Below are positions 10,199 to 32,264 of a DNA stretch of 32,264 nt, in pieces. A program made the position numbers and the translations under genes. The notes under the pieces were generated by a model. It did no database searches and had not been told where the DNA came from. It saw nothing but the letters and a program-made list of their open reading frames with translations. Every line of letters starts with the position of its first letter. Position 1 is the stretch's first letter. This stretch comes from Andreprevotia chitinilytica DSM 18519 (GTDB lineage Bacteria; Pseudomonadota; Gammaproteobacteria; Burkholderiales; Chitinibacteraceae). The DNA lies in NCBI RefSeq assembly GCF_000711875.1, contig NZ_JONM01000032.1:1-32264 (forward strand), written 5' to 3'.

Positions 10199-10918
10199 TC
10201 AGGCGAACTGGCGTTTCCGGATGAGTGCCGCGTAGTTGTCCAAACCATCCCGCTGCGCAACCCCTTTGTGCAGCACATGACTCGGCAACTGGTATTCCGC
10301 TTCGTCCAGCACCAGCAGCAAGCGATGCCGCACGGCGTCGAGCAAGGTGCGGATTGCGCTGCCTGGCATGCGGGTCCAGCCGCCGACGCAATTGAGCGTC
10401 TGAATGAATGCCGGGTAGTTGATCTCGCCGACAAAGCGCGTCGGCCAGCTTTCCTTGGTGTCGTTGTCGCTATAGCGGCTGGGCAGGAAGGACAGGTAAT
10501 CCCGCACTGCGTTGCGGAAATGGCATTGGCCAATGTCTTGCCTGGTGCGTGCGGGCACGAATTGCAGCGGCACCAGCACGCAATCAGGGTCGATGTGCAA
10601 GTCGAAATGCTCGCCGCTGTGAGGGTCGGTGGTTGGGGGCACGGCGACTTTGCGGTAGCTGGGGAGCGCTTGCGATGACGGGTAGCCGTTGAGTTCGTAT
10701 TCCAGCCAGCGGCTGGTGGCCAGGGCGTTGCGTCGGTGGGTGTGTTCCAGCGTGCGGCTCAACAGGCTGGCCAGATCGGCCTGGTCGTTGAGCAGATCGT
10801 TGCGGATGGATTGGATGGTCGTTTCGATATCGCTCTGGTCATTGGGCGCCTGGGGTTTGTCCGGGAGGCGGGGGCCGAGCCCGGCAATGGGGGGAACAGC
10901 TTTGTGGGTGGTGCGCAT
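10199..10918 (-). CDS. AbiTii-domain protein (abortive-infection associated), orphan
   Basis: A 239-residue protein. After a ~28-residue proline-rich, probably disordered start, residues ~30-95 match the AbiTii domain: IRNDLLNDQADLASLLSRTL, then SRWLEYELNGYPSSQALPSYR. The pattern of helix, D-LL-D, ELNGYP and LP-YR is distinctive for AbiTii proteins, which are linked to phage abortive infection and often found in toxin-like or defence contexts. The C-terminal ~100 residues include WTRMPGSAIRTLLDAVRHRLL and are of unknown function, though similar tails occur in other AbiTii proteins. No defence gene is adjacent: it lies alone, 280 bp after the entericidin gene and convergent to it. The domain call comes from pattern memory; function in defence is inference. 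Confidence 0.7.
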   Translation of the reverse strand: MRTTHKAVPPIAGLGPRLPDKPQAPNDQSDIETTIQSIRNDLLNDQADLASLLSRTLEHTHRRNALATSRWLEYELNGYPSSQALPSYRKVAVPPTTDPHSGEHFDLHIDPDCVLVPLQFVPARTRQDIGQCHFRNAVRDYLSFLPSRYSDNDTKESWPTRFVGEINYPAFIQTLNCVGGWTRMPGSAIRTLLDAVRHRLLLVLDEAEYQLPSHVLHKGVAQRDGLDNYAALIRKRQFA

Positions 10919-18828: not shown

Positions 18829-19044
18829 GACCAGTCCCGCGGACTTGCCTATTGTCAGCAACTTATCCTGCACGCGCGACAAGGGCTCGGCGGGATTGAT
18901 TTACAAAAAAATACAAGCTGATATTTTTTGGGGGGAGTCCCAAAAGGGCCTGAAGACCGCCCGGCCACCGTCACTTTACGCGCCCATCATATGGATTTTC
19001 TTGGACGCTGTTACACTCCGGAAAAAAATAGGGAGGGGAGTGTA

Positions 19045-21450
19045 ATGACTACGTGGTTCAGCCGTCGAAAACCGATTTTGCGACGCACCTTGATCGGGCT
19101 GGGCGTGCTATCGCTACTGCTGGTCGCCGCAGTGGTCATCGGGGTGATTTATCTCCGCAGCAGCCGGCCTGTGCTCGATGGCAGCTTGTACGCACAAGGT
19201 CTGCAGGCTGATGTAAACATCGTGCGCGATGCCGATGGCGTGCCCACGGTGTCGGGCTCGAACCGGGAAGACGTGGCGTACGCAACCGGTTTTCTGCATG
19301 CGCAGGAGCGGTTTTTTCAAATGGACCTGTTGCGGCGCTCGGCCTCTGGTGAAGTCGCCGAGCTGATGGGACCTGCGGCGTTGCCATTTGATCGGGAGCG
19401 CCGCATTCATCGCTTTGCCGCGCGTGCGACACAGGCGTTGGCCAAGCTGCCAGCCAGTGAGCGGAAGGTATTGGATCACTACGTCGCCGGCGTCAATGCC
19501 GGGCTGGCCCAGCTCTCTGCCCGGCCATTCGAATACGCAGTGCTGGGCGTAGCGCCACGCCCTTGGCGCGCAGAGGACACGCTGCTCGTCAATTGGTCGA
19601 TGTATTTCGAATTGCAGGGGCAGCAACTCCACCGCGAATTTGCGCGTGGCTGGTTGCGAGACCAATCAACCACGCCCCAGCAGCTGGCCTTCCTGCTGCC
19701 CAAGAGCAGTGAATGGGATGCGCCGCTTGATGCCGCAACGGTGGCCGATGTGCCACCGCCCTTACCCAGCGCCGCCCCGGAATGGTTTGGCGGCCGCCCG
19801 CTCAAGACGGTTGCCGAAGTCGCGATGGATAACAGCGTAGGGAGCAGCAACTGGGCGCTTGCCGGCAAGCGGACAACCCACGGCGGCGCGATCATCGGTA
19901 CCGATATGCACCTCGGGCTGCGACTGCCGCAAATCTGGTATCGGGCCGTGCTGGAATACCCGGCGGCCGACAACAAGAAAGTCCGCCTGACCGGCATCAC
20001 CTTGCCGGGCACACCGCTCATGGTTGCCGGCACCAATGGCACGGTCGCCTGGGGCTTCACCAATAGCTACGGCAATTATCTCGACCTGGTCGAGCTGGAA
20101 TGGGATCCAAAGGATGCGACACGCTATCGCGTAGCCAACGGCACCGAGCCGGTGACGTTTCACGATGAGCGCATCGAGGTGAAGGGCGGCAAGCCGGAGG
20201 TGCTGCGCGTCGCCGATACCCGCTTTGGCCCGGTGTGGAAGAAAGGCGAGCAAAGCTTTGCGGTACGTTGGCTGGCCCATGACGAAGGCGCGGTAAACCT
20301 TGGTCTAATGGCGATGGAGCATGCACAAGACGTCCCCAAGGCATTGGCCGTGGGGCAGTACGCAGGCATCCCGGCACAGAATATGGTGGTGGGGGACAGC
20401 GCCGGGCATATCGGCTGGACGATCGCCGGCCCCTTGCCAGACCGGCGTGCGCTGAATGGCTTTCCCTATCGCGTCGGGGATGAGCATGCCGGCTGGCAAG
20501 CGCTGGCAGCACCTGAGCAGCACCCAAGCTTGATCGATCCCGCCTCCGGCCAGCTCTGGACGGCGAACTCCCGGCAATTGGCCGGCGCTGAGTACGACCG
20601 GATCGGTGACGGCGGCGCGGATTTGGGTGCCCGCACCAAGCAGGTCCGCGATGACCTGACCCAGCTGGGCATCACCGATGAAGCTCACGCCTATCAAGTC
20701 AGCCTGGATGACCGGGCGTTGTTCATGGGCACTTGGCGTGATCGGGCACTGCATGCACTCGACGACGCGGCGCTGGCGGGGCATCCGCAGCGTGCCGAAT
20801 TCAAGCGCTTGCTGCGGGAGGGGTGGAGCGGCCATGCCGACGTTGCCTCGGTGGGCTACCGCCTTAGCCGGGGTTACCTCAACAGTTTGTATGGTCATCT
20901 GTTCGGCGCGGCAGACGAAGCAATCCAGAAAATCGACAGCCAGGCCAGCGTGGCATTGGCGACTTCCAGATGGCCGGTCGTGATCGGCAGACTGCTTGAT
21001 GAACGCCCCGCCGGCTGGCTGCCGCGAGCGGACAAGGATTGGCATGCCGTTGAACTGGCGGCAATCGACGACACGATCTCGAAATTGACGCCAGGCGGCA
21101 CGCCCTTGCGTGAGGCCACCTGGGGCCGGCGCAACACGGCCCACATCGGGCATCCGTTTACGATGGCGATGCCATTCTTGTCGCGCTGGCTCGCCGCACC
21201 GCCCGATCAATTGGCCGGCGACGGCAACATGCCGCGCGTGGCTGCGCCGGAGTTTGGTCAATCGGAACGGATGGTGATTTCACCGGCACGTGAAGCGCAG
21301 GCGATCTTCAATATGCCCGGCGGCCAGAGCGGACACCCGTTAAGTGATTACTTCCTGGCCGGGCACGAGACGTGGGCGCATGGCAAGCCGGCACCGTTGC
21401 TGCCGGGGCCGCAAGCGCATGCATTGACGTTGATGGCGAAGCTGCCTTGA
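19045..21450 (+). CDS. Penicillin-acylase-family N-terminal-nucleophile hydrolase
   Basis: An 801-residue precursor of the penicillin/acyl-homoserine-lactone acylase family (S45), which hydrolyses amide bonds, often of acylated amines. A membrane-spanning or signal segment occurs at residues ~12-35. The alpha-chain region shows IVRDADGVPTVSGSN and VAYATGFLHAQERFFQMDLLRR, a strong family hallmark. The beta chain begins at VG|SSNWALAG: Ser267 should become the new N-terminal nucleophile after self-cleavage, followed by GTDMHLGLRLPQIWYR and GTNGTVAWGFTNSYGNY. Length is typical (750-850). The ATG at 19045 has a near-perfect GGGAGGGGAG ribosome site. Substrates in this family include penicillins, AHL signals and lipopeptide acyl chains; which applies here is not readable. 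It stands alone, pointing toward the NRPS-related cluster. Confidence 0.93.
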   Translation: MTTWFSRRKPILRRTLIGLGVLSLLLVAAVVIGVIYLRSSRPVLDGSLYAQGLQADVNIVRDADGVPTVSGSNREDVAYATGFLHAQERFFQMDLLRRSASGEVAELMGPAALPFDRERRIHRFAARATQALAKLPASERKVLDHYVAGVNAGLAQLSARPFEYAVLGVAPRPWRAEDTLLVNWSMYFELQGQQLHREFARGWLRDQSTTPQQLAFLLPKSSEWDAPLDAATVADVPPPLPSAAPEWFGGRPLKTVAEVAMDNSVGSSNWALAGKRTTHGGAIIGTDMHLGLRLPQIWYRAVLEYPAADNKKVRLTGITLPGTPLMVAGTNGTVAWGFTNSYGNYLDLVELEWDPKDATRYRVANGTEPVTFHDERIEVKGGKPEVLRVADTRFGPVWKKGEQSFAVRWLAHDEGAVNLGLMAMEHAQDVPKALAVGQYAGIPAQNMVVGDSAGHIGWTIAGPLPDRRALNGFPYRVGDEHAGWQALAAPEQHPSLIDPASGQLWTANSRQLAGAEYDRIGDGGADLGARTKQVRDDLTQLGITDEAHAYQVSLDDRALFMGTWRDRALHALDDAALAGHPQRAEFKRLLREGWSGHADVASVGYRLSRGYLNSLYGHLFGAADEAIQKIDSQASVALATSRWPVVIGRLLDERPAGWLPRADKDWHAVELAAIDDTISKLTPGGTPLREATWGRRNTAHIGHPFTMAMPFLSRWLAAPPDQLAGDGNMPRVAAPEFGQSERMVISPAREAQAIFNMPGGQSGHPLSDYFLAGHETWAHGKPAPLLPGPQAHALTLMAKLP

Positions 21451-21805: not shown

Positions 21806-22684
21806 TCAGACCACCCCAACACCTTGAGCGACTTCCAGCCACTCATTCAGCAAGCTGCCAAGCGCCGCAACATGCGGCAATGACAGCATGGTCACGTGGT
21901 TGCCCGATATCTGCAGGTGCTCCAGCGTGCCCACATACCGACGCCACCCATCGATGCGCTGCTGCGTCTGCAGCGCATCCCCTTCCTGGGCGCTGATGAA
22001 CTGCACCGCCCCGGCGAAATGCCCGCTGGGTGCATAGCGGGTTGCCAGATTGGCATCCATCACCTGCACCACGCCGTCCAGAATCTTCTTCTGCGTTTTC
22101 GGATAGAAAATGCCGGCTTTCACCAAGGCTTGATGCAGCAAGGCGATCTGCTGCTCCGCGCTCAGCCCGACAAAGTGCCGCGCCGTCAGTGCCAAAGGTT
22201 GATCCAGCCGCATCTCGTACAGCTCGATCAGCTTCAGCAAAGTCGGGATTCGACCGTGCGGCCGAGCCGCGTCATCTGCATCGTTGGGCGCACGGCTATC
22301 GACGATGACGAGGTTAGCTACCAGCTCGCCTTGTGCGACCAGCAGCAAGGCCAGCTCGAAGGCGATCCAGCCGCCAAAGGAATGGCCGAGCAAATGATAG
22401 GGGCCGTGCGGCTGCACTTCCCGAATGGCATGCAAGTACGCCTGGGCTGCGCTGGCGACATCGGCATAAGGCGCCAGCTCGCCATCGAGGCCACGCGCCT
22501 GCATGCCATGCATCGGAATGTGCACCGACAGCGTTTGCGACAATTCATAGAAGCTGGAGACGCTGGCCCCGGCCCCCGGAATGCAAAACAGCGGCGTAAC
22601 GCCAGATGCACCGCTATGAATGGTGACGCGCGGTTGATAGGCGTGTAGGGCGGTTTCGTCGGGATTCAATCGATGCATTGTCAT
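21806..22684 (-). CDS. NRPS/PKS-type thioesterase (alpha/beta hydrolase)
   Basis: A 292-residue stand-alone thioesterase. Segments are VTPLFCIPGAGASVSSFYEL (oxyanion region), GPYHLLGHSFGGWIAFELA with nucleophile Ser102 in GHSFGG, VIVDSRAP with the likely acid Asp129, and GNHVTMLSLPHV with base His263. The triad is therefore complete. Such proteins either release finished peptides or remove stalled or wrong acyl groups from carrier domains; the opening segment resembles terminal thioesterase domains. The start ATG overlaps the upstream oxidase stop as ATGA, implying translational coupling. It is the last gene of the leftward precursor unit and fits the adjacent NRPS. Confidence 0.9.
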   Translation of the reverse strand: MTMHRLNPDETALHAYQPRVTIHSGASGVTPLFCIPGAGASVSSFYELSQTLSVHIPMHGMQARGLDGELAPYADVASAAQAYLHAIREVQPHGPYHLLGHSFGGWIAFELALLLVAQGELVANLVIVDSRAPNDADDAARPHGRIPTLLKLIELYEMRLDQPLALTARHFVGLSAEQQIALLHQALVKAGIFYPKTQKKILDGVVQVMDANLATRYAPSGHFAGAVQFISAQEGDALQTQQRIDGWRRYVGTLEHLQISGNHVTMLSLPHVAALGSLLNEWLEVAQGVGVV

Positions 22685-23838
22685 TTCGAATAGGTCTGCG
22701 GCGCTTTGAATAACACGGATTGATCCACCTGCTTCACATCGGTGATGCCACAGAGGCTCATCGTGATTTCCAGTTCTTTGTGGATGATTTCCAGGCTTCG
22801 GGATACACCGGCTTCGCCCATTGCCCCTAAGCCGTAAATGAAGGCGCGACCGATATAAACGCCTTTGGCACCCAGCGCGAGTGCCTTGAGGACGTCCTGC
22901 CCGGAGCGAATGCCGCTATCCAGATGGATTTCCATTTCATGGCCTACCGCCTGGACAATGCCCGGCAGCGCGGCAATGGAGGAGGGCGCGCCATCGAGCT
23001 GGCGGCCGCCGTGGTTGGATACGACGATGGCGTCGACACCATGCCGGGTAGCCAGTCGCGCATCTTCCGCATCCAGAATGCCTTTCACGATCAACTTGCC
23101 GTGCCAGCGCTGGCGAATCCACCGGATGTCATTCCAGCTAACGGATTGGTCGAGCTGCTGCGCCGTCCATTGCAATAACGACGCCGTATCCGACACCTCA
23201 GGGACATGCCCGACGATATTGCCGAAACTGTGGCGCTTGGTGCCCAGCATGCCAGTCCACCAGCGGGTTTTATGCGCTACGTTGAGCAGATTGCGCAGGG
23301 ATAGCTTGATCGGGACCGAAAGGCCGTTTTTCAGATCCTTGTTGCGTTGTCCCATCATCGGCAAATCGAGGGTCACGACCAGCGCCGAGCAGCCGGCGGC
23401 TTCAGCGCGTGCGATCAAGCGGCTTGTGAAGTCCCGGTCTTTCATGATGTACAGCTGAAACCAGAACGGCTTGGTGGTACGGGCGGCGATATCCTCGATG
23501 GCGCAGATACTCATCGTGGACAAGGTAAACGGCACGCCAAATTGCTCTGCCGCCTTGGCCGCGAGGATTTCACCATCGGCATGCACCATGCCGGTCAGAC
23601 CGACCGGGGCGAGTGCCACCGGCATGGTCACATCCTGACCCACCATCTGCGTCTGTAACGATCGGTTGGCGACGTTGATGCCGACGCGTTGCCGCAGCTG
23701 GATGCCTGCAAAATCATCCCGATTGGCGCGATAGGTGGATTCGGACCAGGAGCCGGAATCGACATAGTCGTAGAAGATGCGCGGTACCCTTTTTTGGGCG
23801 AGGACGCGCAAGTCCTCGATGTTGGTGATGATGGCCAT
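22681..23838 (-). CDS. FMN-dependent alpha-hydroxy-acid oxidase (Hmo/LldD type)
   Basis: A 385-residue TIM-barrel flavoenzyme that oxidises an L/S-2-hydroxy acid to the 2-keto acid. Seen: FYDYVDSGSWSE near the start, LAPVGLTGMVHADGE, FWFQLYIMKDRDF, the catalytic SNHGGRQLDG (His276 and Arg279), and the phosphate-binding DSGIRSGQDVLKALALGAK with IGRAFIYGLG. Housekeeping L-lactate dehydrogenase and mandelate dehydrogenase share these motifs. Context favours a role as 4-hydroxymandelate oxidase (Hmo), the second step of hydroxyphenylglycine synthesis: the other two steps' enzymes lie directly upstream on the same strand, and a coupled NRPS thioesterase follows. Repeat copy B lies directly before it. 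The name Hmo is inferred, so no symbol is assigned. Confidence 0.88.
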   Translation of the reverse strand: MAIITNIEDLRVLAQKRVPRIFYDYVDSGSWSESTYRANRDDFAGIQLRQRVGINVANRSLQTQMVGQDVTMPVALAPVGLTGMVHADGEILAAKAAEQFGVPFTLSTMSICAIEDIAARTTKPFWFQLYIMKDRDFTSRLIARAEAAGCSALVVTLDLPMMGQRNKDLKNGLSVPIKLSLRNLLNVAHKTRWWTGMLGTKRHSFGNIVGHVPEVSDTASLLQWTAQQLDQSVSWNDIRWIRQRWHGKLIVKGILDAEDARLATRHGVDAIVVSNHGGRQLDGAPSSIAALPGIVQAVGHEMEIHLDSGIRSGQDVLKALALGAKGVYIGRAFIYGLGAMGEAGVSRSLEIIHKELEITMSLCGITDVKQVDQSVLFKAPQTYSK

Positions 23839-23863
23839 CCTTTTGTCCTAAAAGGCTTTTTTA

Positions 23864-24211
23864 TGCGCCTGCGGCGCGGTTTTAAAAGCGTTACAGCGCG
23901 TTCCGCCGCGCGGACGGGGAAAGGACTTTGTCTCGCCAAAGCCCCCTCCACTCCAAAGGCGACCCCCGCTGGGCGGCTCTGGCTGAACGAAGCAAAACTT
24001 CGCACGCCACAGGCTTCCCTCAGTCGGTCGTGAGCCTGGGGTCTCACTCCGCTCCTTCGGCGCTTAGCGAAAGGGGGGAGAAAACCGCTCGGCGTAACCA
24101 TTACGGAAATAACGACGGCACCTGTTTGCGAAGTCTGTTGTTTCGTAGGGCGCAATCCCCGTCGCGTGCGAATCTATGATTCGCTCAGCAAAGGGCATTG
24201 CGCCGCATCTG
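23864..24211. repeat. Intergenic repeat, copy B (MITE-like, ~348 bp)
   Basis: A second copy of the element seen at 21472-21792, in the same orientation. It starts TGCGCCTGCGGCGCGG, shares the CTTTGTCTCGCCAAAG region and a GGTCTCACTCC-type stretch, and ends in a 70 bp block (24142-24211) identical to copy A. The left and middle parts have diverged and differ by about 27 bp in length. It fills most of the 412 bp between the oxidase and aminotransferase genes, which are otherwise likely to be one operon. No coding content is credible. Confidence 0.8.
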
Positions 24212-24250
24212 TTCGCGGAACCGACTTCTCAAAAAATCGTGAACAGACCC

Positions 24251-25555
24251 TTATCGCCCAACCGCGCCCGTCGCCAAACGATCCTTGATGAAAGCGGCAA
24301 ATCGTTGCACGCCGTCCTCGATCAATGCCGGTGTGATATTGCTGTAGGCCATGCGCACGCGGTAATCCTGTTTTTCATCCAGCGCAAAATAAGACAAAGG
24401 CATCACCAGCACTTTGTATTCCTTCGCGCAGCATTCCGCCTCTTGCCGCTTGAATTCAAAGGGCAGGGTGATGTTCAGGAAGAAACCACCGGTTGGCGTA
24501 TTCCACGTGATCTGATCGGCGTAATCCGCAAAGGCGGCCTGCAGGCAATGGATCAGCGCATCCCGATTGCGGCGGTAGATGGATACGACAGGCGCAACCA
24601 GCTGCGCGACGCTGCACCCCTCGGCCAATAGCAAGCCACCTGCAATCGCTTGCGTGATCTGGCTGGTATTGACCGCAGCAAAACTCTTGGCTTGCGACAA
24701 GCGCCCCAACAACGCTGCCGCAGCGGCTTTACTGCCGAACAAGTGCGCCGGAACCACCACGAAGCCAATCCGCAACGTCGGGCAGATGGTCTTCGAATAA
24801 GTACCCAGGTAAACCACACAGCCCTGCGTATCGAGCGCCTGCATCGGTTGAATGCGCTCACCCTCGAAGCGGAACATGCCGTAGGGGTTGTCTTCCAGCA
24901 CCACAATCCGCTTCGCCGCGCAGAACGCAATCACGTCTTCCCGTGTCTGGCGCGACAGCACTTCGCCGGTGGGATTGTCGAAGTCTGGTACGAGGTACAA
25001 CACCCGTGGGCATTTGCCTTGCTGCTCCAGTTCTCGCACCTTTTCCTGCAGCGCCGGCAGCAGCAGCGCCTCGGAATCGGCGGTAAAAGCGGCCAGTCGT
25101 ACCCCGTTCAGCTCTGCCGCGCCGGTGATGCCGATGTAGGTCGGGCTGCGTACCAGCACCACGTCGTCCGCGTCCCGGCACAAGACCTTCACGCACAAAT
25201 CCATCGCTTCCTGGCACCCGGCGGTGATGAGGACTTGGCTGCTGGCGCACTCGATGCCTTCGTCGGTACCCACCTGACGGGCGATCAACTCATTGATGAC
25301 CCCGTTGGTGCGGCCATATTGCGCCAGTTGATTCATGGCCCGAGCAAAGTCGATTTGCTGGCGATCCGCGTAGTAATGCACGAATTCGGGGATGCGCTTT
25401 ATCCAGTGCTCCAGGTCGAAAAACTGTTCGCTGGGCCGCCCGGAAACAAACGAGATGGCGTCGGGAAAGTCATTCGCCATCTCATTGAGGAAATTCATCA
25501 CATCCAGGCGGGACGATTCGATCGAAACCTCGGCCGGGGGTGCCAGCGTGTTCAT
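24251..25555 (-). CDS. HpgT-like PLP-dependent aminotransferase
   Basis: A 434-residue fold-type I aminotransferase. It opens with SSRLDVMNFLNEMANDFPDAISFVSGRP and has QYGRTNGVINELIARQ, features that recall the hydroxyphenylglycine aminotransferase HpgT. Cofactor residues are in place: TAGCQEAMD phosphate loop, PDFDNPTG (Asn194), EDNPYG (Asp222), YSK (Schiff-base Lys255) and LRIGF (Arg262). HpgT adds the amino group to 4-hydroxyphenylglyoxylate to give the arylglycine. The ATG at 25555 is chosen for the GGAAG 7-8 bp upstream; ATGs at 25573 and 25579 are alternatives. It starts 57 bp after the VOC dioxygenase gene, on the same strand. An alternative is a general 2-aminoadipate/valine-pyruvate type transaminase. 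Confidence 0.85.
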   Translation of the reverse strand: MNTLAPPAEVSIESSRLDVMNFLNEMANDFPDAISFVSGRPSEQFFDLEHWIKRIPEFVHYYADRQQIDFARAMNQLAQYGRTNGVINELIARQVGTDEGIECASSQVLITAGCQEAMDLCVKVLCRDADDVVLVRSPTYIGITGAAELNGVRLAAFTADSEALLLPALQEKVRELEQQGKCPRVLYLVPDFDNPTGEVLSRQTREDVIAFCAAKRIVVLEDNPYGMFRFEGERIQPMQALDTQGCVVYLGTYSKTICPTLRIGFVVVPAHLFGSKAAAAALLGRLSQAKSFAAVNTSQITQAIAGGLLLAEGCSVAQLVAPVVSIYRRNRDALIHCLQAAFADYADQITWNTPTGGFFLNITLPFEFKRQEAECCAKEYKVLVMPLSYFALDEKQDYRVRMAYSNITPALIEDGVQRFAAFIKDRLATGAVGR

Positions 25556-25612
25556 GGTGCGCGCTTCCTTCATCAACAATTCTGTTCGTGGCTCAGCTTG
25601 GTCGAGACGTGC

Positions 25613-26116
25613 TCAGTACGCGCCCGATTTTTCAAGCTGTGCAAAGAGTTCGGTCACATTCTCTTCGAGAAACCCTTGTTCGCCGCTGCGCTCGATGAAT
25701 TCAAAGCTCAGCCCGGTGTTCGAATCGCGGCTTGAAAACACCTGCTTGAGCCCGGCGCCGTTGATGACCGTCGTATCGAACTCCATGCCCTGATCGCTTA
25801 ATTGCCGGGCGGTTTCCTCGACGTCATCCACGGCTAGGGCAATGTGCGCCACGCCGGGGCCGAAATTCTCGATCAATCGCGAAACCTGCGATTCCGGCTC
25901 GGTGCCTTGGCACAACACGAACTTGATGCCGTTTTGCTCGATTTCGGCCGATACCATGCCGGTTCGTTGTCCGGCGATGACGCGGCGGCGAATAAGATCA
26001 AAACCGAGCACATTGACGAAGTAATCGATCGCGGCATCCAGATCCTTTACCGCAAAGGCAATGTGGTCGATCTTCTTGAATTGGGTTTTTCCATGCGACT
26101 TCTCTTTCTCAAACAT
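25613..26116 (-). CDS. Half-length HPPD / 4-hydroxymandelate-synthase-like VOC dioxygenase
   Basis: A 167-residue vicinal-oxygen-chelate protein. It matches the catalytic half of 4-hydroxyphenylpyruvate dioxygenase and its relative 4-hydroxymandelate synthase (HmaS): the three iron ligands fit His18 in KKIDHIAF, His91 in GVAHIALAVDD, and Glu139 in SFEFIERSGEQGF, and the C-terminal EENVTELFAQLEKS helix corresponds to the lid helix of HPPD. Usual family members are ~350 residues with two VOC repeats; this has one, so a dimer would be needed or the reaction may differ. HmaS turns 4-hydroxyphenylpyruvate into 4-hydroxymandelate, step one of hydroxyphenylglycine synthesis. The ATG at 26116 has GGAGGA upstream. 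It is probably first in the leftward unit. Substrate (phenyl- or hydroxyphenylpyruvate) is open. Confidence 0.82.
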   Translation of the reverse strand: MFEKEKSHGKTQFKKIDHIAFAVKDLDAAIDYFVNVLGFDLIRRRVIAGQRTGMVSAEIEQNGIKFVLCQGTEPESQVSRLIENFGPGVAHIALAVDDVEETARQLSDQGMEFDTTVINGAGLKQVFSSRDSNTGLSFEFIERSGEQGFLEENVTELFAQLEKSGAY

Positions 26117-26553: not shown

Positions 26554-26595
26554 AAGATACCACTTGACGATGACAATAAGATACCACTTGACGAT
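26554..26595 (+). repeat. Paired 18-bp direct repeat, 24-bp period
   Basis: AAGATACCACTTGACGAT occurs at 26554-26571 and again, exactly, at 26578-26595. The 24-bp period places the copies a little over two helical turns apart. It lies in the divergent control region and is a candidate operator, though no regulator gene is adjacent. Confidence 0.65.
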
Positions 26596-26776: not shown

Positions 26777-27050
26777 TTGCGGCCAGGTGTCAATTGACCA
26801 ATGAATGCTTTTCTGTCGAGGCGCGTATTGCCTCGCGTGTTTCAAACGAGGTGTTGTTGCGCGAATCAGCGTCATTGATGTCAGGACGAAGTGCCAGATA
26901 ACCCTTTCCCGTAGTTGATTGGCCAGGTCGATCCTTTGCTTATTAGTGGCTGTGCTTTTCTTGAATTGAGTGCCAGGAAGAGCAGGGTATTCATATGGCG
27001 GCGAATTCCTGCCGGGATCTGTTCTTAAACTTGCCAGACGAAATTTCCCG

Positions 27051-28712
27051 ATGAATTTGTTTCTATACCTCTATCGGCAATCGCGATCCGCGCTTTTGCT
27101 GTCCATCATCGGTTCGCTCATCAGCGGTCTGGCAGGGGCATCGCTCGTGGGCATCATCAGCCGGGCGATTGATGGGGCGCAGCATCTTCCCGCGCTGGCT
27201 GGCCTGTTCTTCGGCATGTGCCTGGTGTTCCTGATTGCCAAGTCGGCATCGGAACTCCTGCTGCTGCACCTGACGCAAAACGCGATCCTGCGGCTACGCA
27301 TCAGCCTGAGTACCAAGCTGCTCGCCACCCCGCTGTCCAAACTGCAGGAACTTGGCAAGCACGGTCTGCTGGCGGTGTTGACCAAGGACATCGATACCTT
27401 CGTGCAGGCTTTTCAGCTGGTTCCGCTGGTCTTTGGCAATGCCGTGCTGATCGCGGTTTGCCTCACTTATCTGGCCTGGCTGTCCTGGCCGCTCTTTCTC
27501 GTGTTGACGGCGTGCCTGTGCGTGGGCGGGTATGGCTTCCACCTGGCGGAGCGGCGACCGCTGCGGTTGATGACCAAGGTGCGCGATCAGGTCGATACGC
27601 TGTATCAGCACTTCAGAAGCCTGATCGATGGCAGCAAGGAGCTGCAGCTGAATGCGCAGCGCGGGCATGCGTTTGTCAGCGAGGTGATCGCGCCGGGCGC
27701 GGAATACTTCCGGCAGATCTTCACCCGGGGCATGACGAACTACACCTGGGTGCTCAACATCGGCGGCATCCTGTTCTATGTGGTGATCGGCGTCATGGTC
27801 TTTGTCACGCCGATCTGGCTGCCGTTGCCGCGTAGTCAGCTCATTACGGCCACCTTGATCCTGCTGTATTTGATCGGGCCGATCAGCGTGTTGCTGGGCT
27901 CCTTGCCGTCGCTGCGACAAGCCGGCATTGCGCTGCGGAAAATGCAGCGGCTGGATGGGGCGCTGGATGCGCCGACGGCTGGTGCCAACCGGCCCGATCT
28001 CCACGCTGATCCATTCTCCAGGGCCGTCCCGCTGCGGCTCGAACTGCAGAACGTGGTGCACCACTACCCCGGCGACGTGCAAGACAGCCGCTTCAAGCTC
28101 GGCCCACTGAACCTGACGATTCAGCAGGGCGAAATCGTCTTCATCATCGGCGGCAACGGCAGCGGCAAGACCACGCTGGCGATGCTGCTGGTGGGCTTAT
28201 ACGACATCGAGGCCGGGGCGATTCTGCTTAACGGCGTCCCGATGGATGCCAGCAACAACGCGTTTTATCGGCAGCGTTTTGCCGCGGTCTTTGCCGATTT
28301 CCATCTGTTCGAGCAATTGTTGACCGCCGGGCCGGAGGTCGCCGACAAGGCGAAACGCTACATCGACGCACTGGGCATCGGCCACAAGGTCACGGTGGTG
28401 GACGGCAAGTTCTCCACCGTCAATCTCTCTACCGGACAGCGCAAACGCCTGGCGCTGGTGTCCTCCTATCTGGAAGACCGCCCCATCTATCTCTTCGATG
28501 AATGGGCGGCCGATCAAGACCCAGCCTTCAAGCGCGTGTTCTACGCCGAGTTGCTGCCCGACCTGAAAGCACGCGGCAAGACCGTGATCGTCATCAGCCA
28601 CGATGACGCCTATTTCGGCCACGCCGACCGAATCATCAAGCTGGAAGAAGGGCGCCTGAAAGAGCGCAGGCCCTCGCCGCATGCCTTCACAGAAGACGTC
28701 ACCTCAAGCTGA
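27051..28712 (+). CDS. Cyclic-peptide/siderophore ABC exporter (PvdE/SyrD family)
   Basis: A 553-residue half-transporter with membrane domain first and ATPase second, as in the cyclic-peptide export family (SyrD, PvdE). Residues 1-300 contain about six membrane helices (for example ALLLSIIGSLISGLAGASLVG and a LITATLILLYLIGPISVLLG segment). The ATPase has Walker A GGNGSGKTT (Lys373), signature LSTGQRKR, Walker B IYLFDEW followed by AADQDP, and switch His in VISHDD. It works as a homodimer in the inner membrane, moving the peptide or precursor to the periplasm. The ATG at 27051 fits the family start; the longer open frame from 26970 is unsupported and the ribosome site is weak. It lies 16 bp before the NRPS gene, so the two are probably one operon. 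Confidence 0.92.
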   Translation: MNLFLYLYRQSRSALLLSIIGSLISGLAGASLVGIISRAIDGAQHLPALAGLFFGMCLVFLIAKSASELLLLHLTQNAILRLRISLSTKLLATPLSKLQELGKHGLLAVLTKDIDTFVQAFQLVPLVFGNAVLIAVCLTYLAWLSWPLFLVLTACLCVGGYGFHLAERRPLRLMTKVRDQVDTLYQHFRSLIDGSKELQLNAQRGHAFVSEVIAPGAEYFRQIFTRGMTNYTWVLNIGGILFYVVIGVMVFVTPIWLPLPRSQLITATLILLYLIGPISVLLGSLPSLRQAGIALRKMQRLDGALDAPTAGANRPDLHADPFSRAVPLRLELQNVVHHYPGDVQDSRFKLGPLNLTIQQGEIVFIIGGNGSGKTTLAMLLVGLYDIEAGAILLNGVPMDASNNAFYRQRFAAVFADFHLFEQLLTAGPEVADKAKRYIDALGIGHKVTVVDGKFSTVNLSTGQRKRLALVSSYLEDRPIYLFDEWAADQDPAFKRVFYAELLPDLKARGKTVIVISHDDAYFGHADRIIKLEEGRLKERRPSPHAFTEDVTSS

Positions 28713-28728
28713 TCCGAGTAAAAACGAC

Positions 28729-31700
28729 ATGAACCAGTCATTGACACCCAGCCTGGCGACGCTGTTCGACGTCGTTCGATTCCGTGCCTCGCACTCGTCC
28801 GGCACGGCGGATCGCCCCGCCTTCACGTATTTGAATGACGGCGAGAACGTCAGCGGTGCATTGACTTACGCACAACTCGATCAGGCCGCGCAGAAACTGG
28901 CGGCGCGGCTGCAGCAGATCACCCGGCCCGGCGATCGGGTCATGCTGATTTACCCGCCCAGCCTCGATTACATCGTCGCGTTCTACGCCTGCGTGTATGC
29001 CGGCGTGATCGCCGTGCCGGCCTTGCCGCCAGCCAATGCCCGCACCTTGCCCCGGCTGCGTTTGATGGTGGAAGACGCGCAACCCGCCATAGCGCTCACC
29101 CTGGCCAGCATTAGCGCCAGCGTGGCAGAGATGGACAGCGCGGATGACGATGCGCTGCAGCAGCTGCGCTGGATCGCGACTGACGATGCGCATAATAAGG
29201 CGGTGGCGTGGGTGCCGCCCACCTTGCAGCCATCCGACATTGCCTTCCTGCAATACACCTCGGGCTCTACCGGCAACCCCAAGGGGGTCATGGTCAGCCA
29301 CGGCAACGTCATTGCCAATGCCACGCTGGGCAAGGGCAGCTATGGCTTGGCAATGGGTGACGTCTTTGTCTCCTGGTTGCCGCCGCATCACGATTTCGGG
29401 CTGATTGGCGCGATCATCTTTCCGGTTTTCGTGGGCGGCCATAGCGTGCAGTTCCCGCCGGCCTCGTTCCTGATGCGGCCCTATCGCTGGCTGGAACTGA
29501 TCTCGCGTTATCGCGGGCGCATCACGGGTGCGCCCAATTTTGCCTACCAGCTATGTGCCCAGCGGATCACGGAAGCACAAAAGCAGACGCTGGATCTGAG
29601 CAGTCTGGACATCGCCGTCAACGGCGCCGAACGCGTTCGCTATGAGGCGATCCAGCAATTCGCCGAGGCGTTCGCGAGCTGCGGCTTGCGGCCGGAAACC
29701 ATGACGCCTTCGTACGGCATGGCGGAATCGGTGCTGCTGGTCAGCGCGAGCATGCGCAAGCTGCCCGGCCAGCTGCCGGGGGCGCGGCGCATCAGCAAAT
29801 CCGCACTGGAATCGGGCCAGATCGAAGCATCTGCCGACTCGGTGGATGGCATCGATATCGTTTCTACCGGCACGACGCACGGCAGCGCACACCGCATCTT
29901 GATCGTTCAGCCCGAGGCATTGACCGAGCTGCCGGAAGCGCAGATCGGCGAGGTATGGGTCACCGGTGAATCGGTGGCGCGTGGTTACTGGGGGCAGGAC
30001 GAAGCCAGCCGGCAAGCGGTCTTTGGCGGCAAGGTCGCCGGCTACCCGCAGAACTGGCTGAGGACTGGCGATCTGGGTTTCCTGAGTGATGGCGAGCTGT
30101 ATATCACCGGCCGCCTCAAGGAAATGATGATTTTCAACGGCCGCAACGTCTATCCCCAAGACGTTGAGATCACGGTTGAACATGCCGATGCCGCCTTCCG
30201 TACCAACGGCTGCGCCGCATTCTCGCTGGAGGAGGGCGACACGACGCGCTTGGTGGTCGTGCAAGAGGTCGAGACCCGCAAGCAGCCCGACACCGCCAAC
30301 CTGATCGGCAAATTACGCGCCGAACTCGCCGAACGCCACGACATCCTCGACCTGGCCGCTGTGCTGCTCGTCAAGCCGGGCCGCATTCCGCGCACATCGA
30401 GCGGAAAGATTCAGCGGGTGCGCTGCCGGCAGCTCTTTCTTGCCGACGAGTTCGAAGCAAGCTGGTCCTGGCGCGCCGCACACGAGGCGGATGCCGCTGC
30501 AGTCGCAGCTGAGCCGCAAACCGAGACCGAACGGCGCTTGCTGGATATCTGGCAGCAGCTATTTGATCGCCCCTCGCTCTCGACCACCGACAACTTCTTC
30601 CACCTGGGCGGCCACTCCTTGCTCGCCACGCAGCTGGTCGCCCGCGTGCGCACGGTCTTCGAGGTGGAACTGCCGCTGCGCACGCTGTTTCAGGCTTCGA
30701 CCGTGGTGGCCTTGGCCGCCGAGATCGACCGCGCCGCAGCGCAATCCGGCTCGCTGTTGCCGCCGATTGCGCTGGTAACACGGGATGAGCCGCTGCAGTT
30801 GTCATGGGCGCAGCAACGGCTGTGGTTCCTGAATCAGCTCGATGCCAATGCGGGCGCGGCGTACCACATGCCGGCTGGCTTGCGGCTGCACGGCCAGCTG
30901 GATCGCGCTGCGTTACGGGCGACGCTGGATCGCATCGTGGCGCGGCATGAAGCGTTGCGGACTTGCTTCAAGTCGGATGGCGGTGAGGCGGTGCAAGTGA
31001 TTGCGCCGGCCGATGTTGGTTTCAGCTTGGTGGAGCATGACCTACGCGTATTGACTGGCCCGGATCGATCCATTCGCGTTGAGCAACTCAGCCAAGCCGA
31101 AGCAGTGCAACCCTTTGATCTATCGACCGGTCCGCTGATTCGCGGCCAGTTGCTGCAGCTGGCCGATGACGAGCATCTGCTGCTGATCACCCAGCACCAC
31201 ATCATTTCGGATGGCTGGTCGATTGGCGTGCTGGTGCGGGAAGTGAGCGCGCTTTATACCGCCTTCCACCAAGGCCAAGCCGATCCGCTACCGCCACTCG
31301 CCATCCAGTACACCGACTACGCTGCCTGGCAACGCAGCTGGTTGCAGGGCGAGGTGCTACAAACCCAGGTCGATTTCTGGCAACAGCACCTGACTGGTGC
31401 ACCAGCCTTACTCGATCTGCCAACCGATCGACCGCGCCCGGCAGTGCAAAGTTATGCCGGCGGCCAAGTGGCACTGAACTTGTCACCCGCGCTGACGAAC
31501 AGCCTTAAACAATTGAGCCAACGCCACGGCACCACCTTGTTCATGACACTGCTGGCCGGCTGGTCAGTATTGCTGAGCCGCTGGAGCGGGCAGAACGATG
31601 TGGTTATCGGCACGCCAGTGGCAAACCGCCAGCGCAGCGAGCTGGAAGGCTTGATGGGCTTCTTCGTCAACACCCTGGCCTTGCGGGTGAAGCTGGACGG

Positions 31701-32264
31701 CAACCCTAAAGTGGATGAACTGCTGAGCCAGATCAAAGCCAGCACCATCGCCGCCTATGCGCATCAAGACCTGCCGTTCGAGCAGGTGGTGGAAGTGCTG
31801 CAACCGGCACGTAGCCTGAGCCACAGCCCCGTATTCCAGGTCATGCTGGCGCTGAACAACACACCCAACGATGGTGAGCTCAGTTTGCCGGGCTTGGTGC
31901 TGAACCCGGTGGAACAGACGAGCACGACAACGCAGTTCGACTTGTCGCTCTCGCTCACCGATACCGTGACGGGGCTGGTCGGCAGGCTGGACTACGCCAG
32001 CGACTTGTTCGACGCGCAAACCATCGAGCGATTGGCGGGGCATTTGGAAACGCTGTTCGCTGGCTTGATAGAAAACGATCAACAGCCGATTGACCAATTA
32101 CCGCTGCTGTCGGCGTCAGAGCGCCAGCAAGTGCAGGTGGATTTCAATGCCACCGCAGTGGACTACCCGGCCGAGGCACTGATCCATCAGCTGTTTGAAG
32201 CCCAAGCGGCAGCGCAACCTGATGCCATCGCACTGGTGTGTGAAGACCAGACGCTGAGTTACGG
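28729..32264 (+). CDS. Lipopeptide NRPS: FAAL - carrier - condensation - adenylation (3'-truncated by window edge)
   Basis: The frame from ATG 28729 stays open to the window edge (about 1,178 residues visible). Residues ~1-590 are a fatty acyl-AMP ligase (FAAL): YTSGSTGNPKGVMVSH at ~176-191, SWLPPHHDFGLIG, PSYGMAESVLL, WLRTGDLGFL, and GRLKEMMIFNGRNVYPQDVE. Residues ~597-668 are a carrier domain, with Ser630 in FFHLGGHSLL for phosphopantetheine. Residues ~684-1130 are a condensation domain (LSWAQQRLWFL; catalytic HHIISDG, His823-His824 to Gly829; NRQRSELEGLMGFFVNTLALRV). An adenylation domain begins at ~1145. Thus a fatty acid is activated, loaded and joined to the first amino acid. The LGGHS carrier is PCP-like rather than ACP-like. 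The amino acid cannot be read, as the A-domain pocket is outside the window. Confidence 0.93.
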   Translation, partial: MNQSLTPSLATLFDVVRFRASHSSGTADRPAFTYLNDGENVSGALTYAQLDQAAQKLAARLQQITRPGDRVMLIYPPSLDYIVAFYACVYAGVIAVPALPPANARTLPRLRLMVEDAQPAIALTLASISASVAEMDSADDDALQQLRWIATDDAHNKAVAWVPPTLQPSDIAFLQYTSGSTGNPKGVMVSHGNVIANATLGKGSYGLAMGDVFVSWLPPHHDFGLIGAIIFPVFVGGHSVQFPPASFLMRPYRWLELISRYRGRITGAPNFAYQLCAQRITEAQKQTLDLSSLDIAVNGAERVRYEAIQQFAEAFASCGLRPETMTPSYGMAESVLLVSASMRKLPGQLPGARRISKSALESGQIEASADSVDGIDIVSTGTTHGSAHRILIVQPEALTELPEAQIGEVWVTGESVARGYWGQDEASRQAVFGGKVAGYPQNWLRTGDLGFLSDGELYITGRLKEMMIFNGRNVYPQDVEITVEHADAAFRTNGCAAFSLEEGDTTRLVVVQEVETRKQPDTANLIGKLRAELAERHDILDLAAVLLVKPGRIPRTSSGKIQRVRCRQLFLADEFEASWSWRAAHEADAAAVAAEPQTETERRLLDIWQQLFDRPSLSTTDNFFHLGGHSLLATQLVARVRTVFEVELPLRTLFQASTVVALAAEIDRAAAQSGSLLPPIALVTRDEPLQLSWAQQRLWFLNQLDANAGAAYHMPAGLRLHGQLDRAALRATLDRIVARHEALRTCFKSDGGEAVQVIAPADVGFSLVEHDLRVLTGPDRSIRVEQLSQAEAVQPFDLSTGPLIRGQLLQLADDEHLLLITQHHIISDGWSIGVLVREVSALYTAFHQGQADPLPPLAIQYTDYAAWQRSWLQGEVLQTQVDFWQQHLTGAPALLDLPTDRPRPAVQSYAGGQVALNLSPALTNSLKQLSQRHGTTLFMTLLAGWSVLLSRWSGQNDVVIGTPVANRQRSELEGLMGFFVNTLALRVKLDGNPKVDELLSQIKASTIAAYAHQDLPFEQVVEVLQPARSLSHSPVFQVMLALNNTPNDGELSLPGLVLNPVEQTSTTTQFDLSLSLTDTVTGLVGRLDYASDLFDAQTIERLAGHLETLFAGLIENDQQPIDQLPLLSASERQQVQVDFNATAVDYPAEALIHQLFEAQAAAQPDAIALVCEDQTLSY

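What the first reader, a model, noticed from the sequence alone, without database searches (positions are those of the whole stretch)
22681..26116. Three-enzyme (hydroxy)phenylglycine cassette beside a lipopeptide NRPS
Transcribed together on the minus strand are an HPPD/HmaS-like VOC dioxygenase, an HpgT-like aminotransferase and an FMN 2-hydroxy-acid oxidase. Seen: metal ligands, PLP lysine and the flavin-oxidase SNHGGRQLD motif. Known: HmaS, Hmo and HpgT convert hydroxyphenylpyruvate to hydroxyphenylglycine, best characterised in actinomycete glycopeptide, calcium-dependent-antibiotic-type and nocardicin clusters. Inferred: this proteobacterial cluster makes an arylglycine for the adjacent NRPS. 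Such a cassette in a Gram-negative lipopeptide cluster would be uncommon.
Basis: partly seen in the sequence, partly recalled or inferred. Interest (0 to 1): 0.85.

Follow-up and report, generated by a model that had tools for sequence, protein, structure and literature searches.

The report
Arylglycine cassette with half-size dioxygenase
Next to a bacterial lipopeptide assembly line lie three genes that probably make an unusual aromatic amino acid, (hydroxy)phenylglycine; the set recurs across Gram-negative bacteria, but its first enzyme is only half the size of the known one and its oxidase resembles a lactate-oxidising family.

Summary
The three genes are present as described, beside a FAAL-started (lipopeptide) NRPS and a cyclic-peptide exporter. 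Arylglycine supply remains the best reading. (1) The aminotransferase groups with enzymes of actinomycete arylglycine-type cassettes (5 of 5 opened). (2) The VOC family lies in NRPS loci of beta-, alpha- and gammaproteobacteria, with the same aminotransferase in 11 of 19 other loci; 5 of those 11 also hold an FMN oxidase or an unrelated Ldh_2 dehydrogenase. (3) Six of the 11 show an adenylation code of aryl type (e.g. DILHLGCTFK, printed as also accepting Hpg). This genome has DAWHLGCTF on a contig that shares 95 identical bases with the window's end. Corrections: the VOC has 167 aa, about half of HmaS/HPPD, and by sequence alone is no closer to HmaS C-domains than to some single-domain VOCs; the oxidase belongs to the LldA L-lactate-dehydrogenase clade, not Hmo, though both same-genus genomes lack it. 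Hpg in Gram-negative lipopeptides is already known (Burkholderia haereogladins, burriogladins). A half-size putative hydroxymandelate synthase, and VOC loci lacking the aminotransferase whose aryl-type A domain has lost Asp235, were not found in the papers searched. No activity is shown. New variant of a known kind.

The parts
25613..26116 (-). Half-size VOC protein, 167 aa: putative (hydroxy)mandelate synthase; H18, H91, E139 as predicted metal ligands; GGAGGA ribosome-binding site upstream
24251..25555 (-). HpgT/PglE-type aminotransferase (likely ATG at 25555, 434 aa; open frame from TTG at 25579); PLP lysine in YSKTICP
22681..23838 (-). FMN-dependent 2-hydroxy-acid oxidase/dehydrogenase, LldA clade, putatively recruited as (hydroxy)mandelate oxidase
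21806..22684 (-). Stand-alone thioesterase, 4-bp overlap with the oxidase gene
   Evidence: 44% identical to the thioesterase domain just before the oxidase gene in Duganella lactea
26970..28712 (+). Cyclic-peptide export ABC transporter (TIGR01194)
28681..32262 (+). NRPS start: FAAL - PCP - C, open at contig end; last 95 nt identical to C31:28130-28224, where the DAWHLGCTF A domain begins
18928..21450 (+). Penicillin-acylase-type hydrolase; an acylase of this family also lies near the VOC in Duganella, G561 and Vibrio europaeus

Best explanation
The three genes supply an arylglycine, most likely 4-hydroxyphenylglycine (phenylglycine not excluded), to the adjacent lipopeptide NRPS. Inferred steps: (1) the half-size VOC protein, probably as a homodimer with an H-H-E iron site in each chain, converts 4-hydroxyphenylpyruvate with O2 to 4-hydroxymandelate; (2) the LldA-type FMN enzyme oxidises this to 4-hydroxyphenylglyoxylate; (3) the HpgT-type aminotransferase makes Hpg; (4) an A domain with the aryl-type code DAWHLGCTF loads it. 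Shown here: gene content, family placement, recurrence and A-domain codes. Not shown: any activity, substrate or product. Step 3 is the best supported, step 2 in this window the least.
For: Aminotransferase: among the 20 best plasmid records listed of 1481, the hits outside proteobacterial NRPS loci are Streptomyces or Embleya at 36-40%. Five opened, 5 of 5 beside arylglycine-type genes: type III PKS with enoyl-CoA hydratases, hppD-hydroxyacid oxidase-prephenate dehydrogenase, two like hppD-NRPS-halogenase loci without an annotated oxidase, PglA-E-like genes. Paralogues branch outside. VOC: TIGR01263 (HPPD) 79.4 bits against 56.1 for methylmalonyl-CoA epimerase; best solved-structure hit 7yvv, titled R-4-hydroxymandelate synthase AcmP1. 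Linkage: this aminotransferase in 11 of 19 other VOC loci; 5 of those 11 also hold an oxidase or dehydrogenase (Duganella, G664, G308, G424; Vibrio europaeus with an unrelated Ldh_2). G664's oxidase scores (S)-mandelate dehydrogenase and 4-hydroxymandelate oxidase highest among chains of ordinary length. In S. meliloti the VOC is fused to a chorismate mutase and abuts a PDH_N protein. Codes: DILHLGCTFK in 3 loci, DAWHMGCTF and DAWHLGCTFK in 2 more, DIVHLGLVLK in Vibrio; PMC12283262 section 9 prints DAMHLGCTFK/DILHLGCTFK as also accommodating Hpg. Here DAWHLGCTF on C31; 0 of 17 A domains read on C33, C49 and part of C8 have H-x-G at positions 4-6.
Against: Like for like, a profile of 20 half-size proteins scores two single-domain VOCs at 71.8 and 64.9 bits, the three HmaS C-domains at 58.6-62.2; in the PDB search the C half of 7yvv adds up to about 69 bits, epimerases reach 67, and the better whole-chain E-values of HPPD/HmaS come partly from both halves matching. 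Gln70 is nearly invariant, close to where epimerase-type VOCs carry a fourth ligand (recalled). The oxidase is in the LldA clade. No such A domain is on the window itself; the C30-C31 link rests on one 95-nt overlap. The printed code also serves Leu-group domains. Four VOC+AT loci showed no aryl-type code (G538 with 5 A domains read, G732 and G549 with 1 each, G664 with 0), G308 only a partial likeness. Six of the 11 VOC+AT loci showed no oxidase in the stretch read. No prephenate dehydrogenase among the 20 window ORFs scanned.
Confidence: 0.7

Rival explanations
1. VOC and aminotransferase belong to the arylglycine pathway, but the oxidase is an ordinary L-lactate dehydrogenase (LldA) that merely lies there; step 2 is done by another enzyme.
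For: 66% identical to an annotated LldA and 66-70% to LldA-type enzymes of Caballeronia and other genomes, against 60% to the Duganella cluster enzyme and 36-38% to the mandelate-type cluster enzymes and Hmo. A 412-bp gap separates it from the aminotransferase. Six of 11 VOC+AT loci have no oxidase in the stretch read.
Against: It is the only match at E <= 0.001 in this genome, has no match at E <= 1e-30 in both same-genus genomes, and is present in 2 of 25 genomes of its family, own included. It overlaps the thioesterase gene by 4 bp. At column 160, 11 of 15 LldA-clade proteins have Gln, one Thr; Pro in the window, Ala in the Duganella cluster enzyme and in G549's, which lies beside an acylase gene and a weakly matching ABC gene. 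Mandelate-type cluster enzymes have Ala, Hmo Pro; but E. coli LldD also has Pro, and the column was picked after looking at ten motifs, so it is only suggestive.
Confidence: 0.25
2. The VOC is not an oxygenase but an epimerase or glyoxalase-like protein acting on another cluster intermediate.
For: Single-domain size and ligand spacing fit methylmalonyl-CoA epimerase. The family profile scores two single-domain VOCs (L040, L006) above HmaS C-domains. Foldseek ranks epimerases first, though on a poor model (mean pLDDT 55.9). Near-invariant Gln70.
Against: NCBIfam HPPD 79.4 bits against epimerase 56.1, both under their cut-offs. A C-terminal pattern (L-x-Q-x-F, E-[LIVF]-[IVL]-x-R..N...LF), written after seeing the alignment, occurs in 19 of 20 half-size proteins and 3 of 3 HmaS C-domains, not in 3 HmaS N-domains, 4 other single-domain VOCs or the two parts of L009; the HMM matches HmaS C-domains to position 164-165 but the two best single-domain VOCs only to 142-143. 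Fusion to chorismate mutase and the shared aminotransferase and oxidase slots.
Confidence: 0.18
3. The cassette makes a different glycine, e.g. unsubstituted or 4-amino-phenylglycine, or an aliphatic branched one.
For: The printed code is shared with Leu-group domains; two rhizobial relatives carry pabB and chorismate mutase genes near the VOC, one of them also a class IV aminotransferase.
Against: pabB plus a class IV enzyme can also mean PABA, which haereogladins carry next to Hpg; the aminotransferase family is tied to aryl- and hydroxyarylglycines.
Confidence: 0.2

Closest known systems
Actinomycete Hpg cassette HmaS-Hmo-HpgT (glycopeptides, CDA: recalled; example seen: Streptomyces angustmyceticus plasmid)
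   Same: Three-step logic, HpgT-type aminotransferase, flavin oxidase, NRPS client
   Different: HmaS there is a two-domain protein (347-369 aa in the three examples), here 167 aa; oxidase from the LldA clade; no prephenate dehydrogenase among the window ORFs scanned
Hpg-containing Burkholderia lipopeptides haereogladin, burriogladin, haereoplantin, burrioplantin (PMC9581180, passages read)
   Same: Gram-negative linear lipopeptides with Hpg
   Different: Their Hpg biosynthetic genes could not be read here (Yoshimura 2020 not held; Thongkongkaew 2018 known only through the review); no B. gladioli or B. plantarii genome could be addressed by name
Phenylglycine pathway PglA-E (pristinamycin; PMC7089894, passages)
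   Same: Homologous aminotransferase (37% to the PglE-like protein on a Streptomyces plasmid)
   Different: Uses a dehydrogenase complex and thioesterase instead of VOC and FMN oxidase
4-hydroxyphenylpyruvate dioxygenase (TIGR01263)
   Same: Homologous to its catalytic C-terminal half, 79.4 bits
   Different: Half length, far below the 277-bit cut-off
Single-domain VOC proteins such as methylmalonyl-CoA epimerase
   Same: Size, two-module fold, similar profile scores
   Different: TIGR03081 56.1 bits, under its cut-off of 114.95; lacks the HPPD-like C-terminal extension

Membership tests
HmaS-Hmo-HpgT Hpg cassette | Two-domain HmaS of about 350 aa | tested here: not met
   167 aa; TIGR01263 79.4 bits against cut-off 277; upstream minus-strand frames reach at most 103 aa before the exporter gene and the two longest have no Pfam match at E <= 1
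HmaS-Hmo-HpgT Hpg cassette | H-H-E metal ligands and HPPD/HmaS C-terminal extension | tested here: met
   H18, H91, E139 invariant in 18 of 18; aligned with HmaS and HPPD; extension. H-H-E is shared with other VOCs, so this alone does not prove membership
HmaS-Hmo-HpgT Hpg cassette | Sequence clearly closer to HmaS/HPPD than to other VOCs | tested here: inconclusive
   NCBIfam favours HPPD, like-for-like profile scores do not
HmaS-Hmo-HpgT Hpg cassette | Oxidase of the Hmo/mandelate-dehydrogenase group | tested here: not met
   LldA clade; a mandelate-type enzyme is present in relatives G664, G308, G424
HmaS-Hmo-HpgT Hpg cassette | HpgT-type aminotransferase | tested here: met
   Tree and neighbourhoods
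HmaS-Hmo-HpgT Hpg cassette | Client NRPS with an Hpg-type A domain | tested here: inconclusive
   DAWHLGCTF on contig C31, joined to the window only by a 95-nt overlap
HmaS-Hmo-HpgT Hpg cassette | Hpg formed from 4-hydroxyphenylpyruvate | not testable with these tools
   Needs enzyme assays or LC-MS
Housekeeping L-lactate dehydrogenase LldA/LldD | Sequence in the LldA clade | tested here: met
   66% to LldA; PRK11197 444.8 bits over cut-off 376, LldD exception model 400.8 under 550
Housekeeping L-lactate dehydrogenase LldA/LldD | Core gene of the genus or family | tested here: not met
   0 of 2 same-genus genomes; 2 of 25 family genomes including this one, at E <= 1e-30
Methylmalonyl-CoA epimerase | Match to the family above its cut-off | tested here: not met
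   TIGR03081 56.1 bits, cut-off 114.95

The most novel reading that the evidence does not exclude
Proteobacterial NRPS loci carry a distinct single-domain (half-HPPD) hydroxymandelate synthase family. Where an HpgT-type aminotransferase is present it feeds arylglycine modules. Where it is missing (G733, G645, Paraburkholderia sabiae plasmid) the aryl-type A domain has lost Asp235 (GVLHLGLIVK, GVLHLGLIVK, SILHLGCTFK) and would load 4-hydroxymandelate, or its keto acid, directly, giving arylglycolate-containing lipodepsipeptides. All 7 VOC+AT sources with such a domain (this genome and 6 loci) keep Asp235; 3 of 3 VOC-only loci with one do not, though G733 and G645 look closely related and only the plasmid of P. 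sabiae was searched.
Probability: 0.35. Interest if true: 0.75.

Novelty: new variant of a known kind. Interest (0 to 1): 0.57.

Why it matters
If true, hydroxymandelate synthase chemistry does not need the two-domain HPPD architecture, and a minimal enzyme of about 165 residues becomes available for study and for making Hpg, a beta-lactam side-chain precursor. It also gives a gene marker for mining Gram-negative genomes for arylglycine lipopeptides outside Burkholderia (Duganella, rhizobial plasmids, Vibrio), and the loss of Asp235 where the aminotransferase is missing is a cheap, testable rule for hydroxy-acid-loading modules.

Tried and rejected
That compares two-domain with one-domain chains. 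The like-for-like test does not favour HmaS, so I lowered the main reading from 0.74 to 0.70 and the novel case from 0.40 to 0.35, and raised the epimerase-like rival from 0.12 to 0.18.

First A-domain regex was too strict. Pairwise code extraction misread this genome's C31 code as DAWHFQCTF; a joint alignment gave DAWHLGCTF, and reading more of G645 gave GVLHLGLIVK there. The pairwise codes should not be used. The FAAL filter caught nothing, so FAALs appear there as odd codes (DLTGYASVF and the like) and were set aside by eye. C33's DVRHLALLAK was considered as the Hpg domain and dropped: matches of the window's condensation domain to C33 are about 67%, to C31 72-84%. The shared DLFNNALTYK of C8 and Duganella was rejected as a link. 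Structure prediction of the VOC had 3 sequences and mean pLDDT 55.9; its Foldseek list is weak evidence. In one search, 15 of the 20 loci named as outgroups gave no sequence, so the VOC module tree has only 12 outgroup modules and is not used as evidence. A viral-contig scan found no relative. Promoter and terminator scans were at or below chance.

Against the pattern: Sinorhizobium garamanticum (L057) has two VOC copies without the usual C-terminus and no annotated NRPS in 24 kb; G059 has VOC but no A-domain motif in 60 kb. Plasmid hits H4, H5 and H9 (60.3%, 60.3% and 47.7%, same figures as opened ones) and those below H10 were not opened. Of 1481 plasmid records with an aminotransferase match 20 were listed and 5 actinomycete ones opened. 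A domains on contigs C1, C2, C3 and C17 of this genome were not read.

Papers: PMC12283262 section 9, one part of its reference list and passages; PMC9581180, PMC7866175 and PMC7089894 passages only; the rest search listings. Searches behind 'not found in print'; the library holds open-licence papers only.
Full report
Observation. The window is a complete contig (C30) of a 5.15-Mb, 61-contig genome. Three minus-strand genes lie at the stated coordinates: VOC, aminotransferase, FMN oxidase, followed by a thioesterase overlapping the oxidase by 4 bp. Divergent to them are a cyclic-peptide exporter and an NRPS opening with FAAL-PCP-C that runs off the contig. An acylase of the penicillin amidase family lies at 18928-21450.

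The VOC. It has 167 residues. It matches TIGR01263 (HPPD) with 79.4 bits, best stretch at model positions 149-265, far under the cut-off of 277, and the epimerase model TIGR03081 with 56.1. The best solved-structure hit is 7yvv, which titles AcmP1, R-4-hydroxymandelate synthase. H18, H91 and E139 are invariant in 18 of 18, Gln70 nearly so. In a profile search of the PDB, HPPD and HmaS lead (whole-chain E 3e-29 to 4e-27; epimerases about 1e-17), but both halves of the two-domain chains add to their scores; the C half of 7yvv sums to about 69 bits, level with single-domain VOCs at 67-69. A like-for-like run of a 20-sequence profile gave 71.8 and 64.9 bits for two single-domain VOCs and 58.6-62.2 for three HmaS C-domains. 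What does point to HPPD/HmaS is the C-terminal extension after the Glu ligand, matched to position 164-165 in HmaS C-domains and only to 142-143 in those two single-domain proteins. Relative to HmaS/HPPD the protein lacks the N-terminal domain and roughly 35 residues of the C-terminal one (alignments). It is not a local truncation: minus-strand frames upstream reach at most 103 aa with no Pfam match in the two longest, open frames of the relatives are 166-263 aa, and five intact annotated plasmid copies are 180-182 aa. The substrate assignment therefore rests on context more than on sequence.

The aminotransferase. NCBIfam gives only distant names. Its listed best plasmid hits are NRPS-linked proteobacterial proteins (39-47%), then Streptomyces and Embleya proteins (36-40%). 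The five Streptomyces ones opened lie beside type III PKS and enoyl-CoA hydratase genes (Dpg-like, my reading), hppD-NRPS-halogenase genes (two similar loci), hppD-hydroxyacid oxidase-prephenate dehydrogenase genes, and PglA-E-like genes. In a tree, paralogues from this and other genomes fall outside a group holding all of these. This is the best-supported of the three assignments.

The oxidase. It is 66% identical to an annotated LldA, 66-70% to LldA-type enzymes of Caballeronia and other genomes, 60% to the Duganella cluster enzyme, 38% to an actinomycete Hmo, and 36-37% to cluster enzymes of G664, G308 and G424. So it is an LldA-clade protein. It is the only match in this genome, absent at E <= 1e-30 from both same-genus genomes and present in 2 of 25 genomes of the family, own included. 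Within 15 LldA-clade proteins (60% or more to the window), column 160 is Gln in 11, Thr in 1, and Pro, Ala and Ala in the window, Duganella and G549 enzymes. The last two are sisters (91% bootstrap) and the window enzyme is not their sister, so recruitment looks independent. G549's gene lies beside an acylase gene and a weakly matching ABC gene, 80 kb from its VOC on one contig. The column was chosen after viewing ten motifs, and whether it lines the substrate pocket was not tested.

Relatives. The VOC at E <= 1e-15 occurs in 3 of 399 genomes drawn from the order (own included) and 11 of 392 from the family of Duganella lactea (Duganella included); the plasmid collection gave 32 records at E <= 1e-5, which include ordinary HPPDs and epimerases. 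I read 19 loci besides this one (13 genomes, 6 plasmids). An A-domain or FAAL motif is present in 17 of 19 (not G664, a 5.3-kb contig, nor G059). An HpgT-type aminotransferase is in the locus in 11 of 19: G538, G664, G732, G549, G424, G308, Duganella, S. chiapasense, Rhizobium T136, Vibrio europaeus, Bradyrhizobium 187 (split gene). Of those 11, an FMN oxidase is in the locus in Duganella, G664, G308 and G424 (28 kb away across the NRPS), and an Ldh_2 dehydrogenase in Vibrio europaeus; in the other 6 none was seen in the stretch read. A different family of 2-hydroxy-acid dehydrogenase in the same slot is an argument for the chemistry of the slot. In S. meliloti T073 the VOC is fused to a CM_2 domain and followed by a PDH_N protein, which argues for an arylpyruvate substrate. 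A twentieth locus (S. garamanticum) shows altered VOC copies without NRPS.

Adenylation codes (joint alignment). VOC+AT loci: DILHLGCTFK (S. chiapasense, Rhizobium T136, Bradyrhizobium 187), DAWHMGCTF (Duganella; last position unlike the usual Lys), DAWHLGCTFK (G424), DIVHLGLVLK (Vibrio); partial likeness only in G308; none seen in G538 (5 A domains), G732 (1), G549 (1), G664 (0). PMC12283262 section 9 prints DAMHLGCTFK/DILHLGCTFK as also accommodating Hpg. That DIVHLGLVLK and GVLHLGLIVK resemble the actinomycete Hpg code is recalled. VOC loci without aminotransferase in the locus: SILHLGCTFK (P. sabiae), GVLHLGLIVK (G733), GVLHLGLIVK (G645); none seen in G561 (4 A domains; an aminotransferase 38% identical lies on another contig), S. 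meliloti (2), G430 and G782 (FAAL only), G059 (none). In G733 and G645 the best aminotransferase in the whole genome is a 32-33% paralogue; for P. sabiae only the plasmid was searched. In this genome DAWHLGCTF is the last A domain of C31, cut by the contig end; none of 17 A domains read on C33, C49 and a 32-kb part of C8, and none of the 8 others on C31, has H-x-G at positions 4-6. The last 95 nt of the window are identical to C31:28130-28224, where that A domain starts (28154), and the window's condensation domain is 72-84% identical in DNA to those of C31. The likeliest reading is that the first A domain after the window is a near-copy of it, but this is inference from an assembly break.

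Mechanism and judgement. The gene set, the HpgT-type aminotransferase, replacement of the oxidase by another 2-hydroxy-acid dehydrogenase family, the chorismate mutase-VOC fusion and the Hpg-compatible codes together make arylglycine supply the best explanation (0.70). Hpg against Phg is undecided. Hpg in Gram-negative lipopeptides is established in Burkholderia, so the product class is known. What seems new, within the papers searched, is the half-size enzyme family and the link between a missing aminotransferase and loss of Asp235. That Asp235 binds the substrate amino group, that HpgT can use tyrosine as donor, and that epimerase-type VOCs use a fourth Gln ligand are recalled, not from calls.

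Noticed in passing
L054, G733 (L085), G645 (L108): VOC loci without HpgT-type aminotransferase have an aryl-type A domain lacking Asp235 (SILHLGCTFK, GVLHLGLIVK twice), suggesting direct loading of 4-hydroxymandelate.
   Followed up: partly
L062:7902-8681 (-): Sinorhizobium meliloti T073 plasmid: chorismate mutase fused to the half-size VOC, next to prephenate dehydrogenase, pabB, class IV aminotransferase and NRPS genes; possibly Hpg plus PABA supply as in haereogladins.
   Followed up: partly
L061:37679-40540: Vibrio europaeus plasmid: VOC, aminotransferase and an Ldh_2-family dehydrogenase in the slot of the FMN oxidase.
   Followed up: yes
window 1-1280: PLP decarboxylase stretch identical over 1280 bp to the end of contig C42, which carries a paralogous FAAL-NRPS start (68% DNA identity); C49 ends in its first 228 bp. 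Two sister lipopeptide clusters seem to exist.
   Followed up: partly
contig C31 (L030, L031), about 2443 and 21927: Two A domains with code VDTTVSFGDK, lacking Asp235, similar in pattern to beta-alanine codes (recalled); a PLP decarboxylase copy lies at the window start.
   Followed up: no
window 18928-21450; L039:11203-13629; L061:1-1220; L174:1074-3650: Penicillin-acylase-type genes recur in the VOC clusters, suggesting deacylation of a lipopeptide precursor.
   Followed up: no
window 10199-10918 (-): ORF with an AbiTii domain (Pfam PF18864, 60.7 bits), a candidate phage-defence gene.
   Followed up: no
window 26554-26595: Two perfect 18-nt direct repeats (AAGATACCACTTGACGAT) 24 nt apart between the VOC and exporter genes; possible regulator sites.
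   Followed up: no
L057: Sinorhizobium garamanticum plasmid with two altered VOC copies and no annotated NRPS nearby: possibly a decayed cassette.
   Followed up: no
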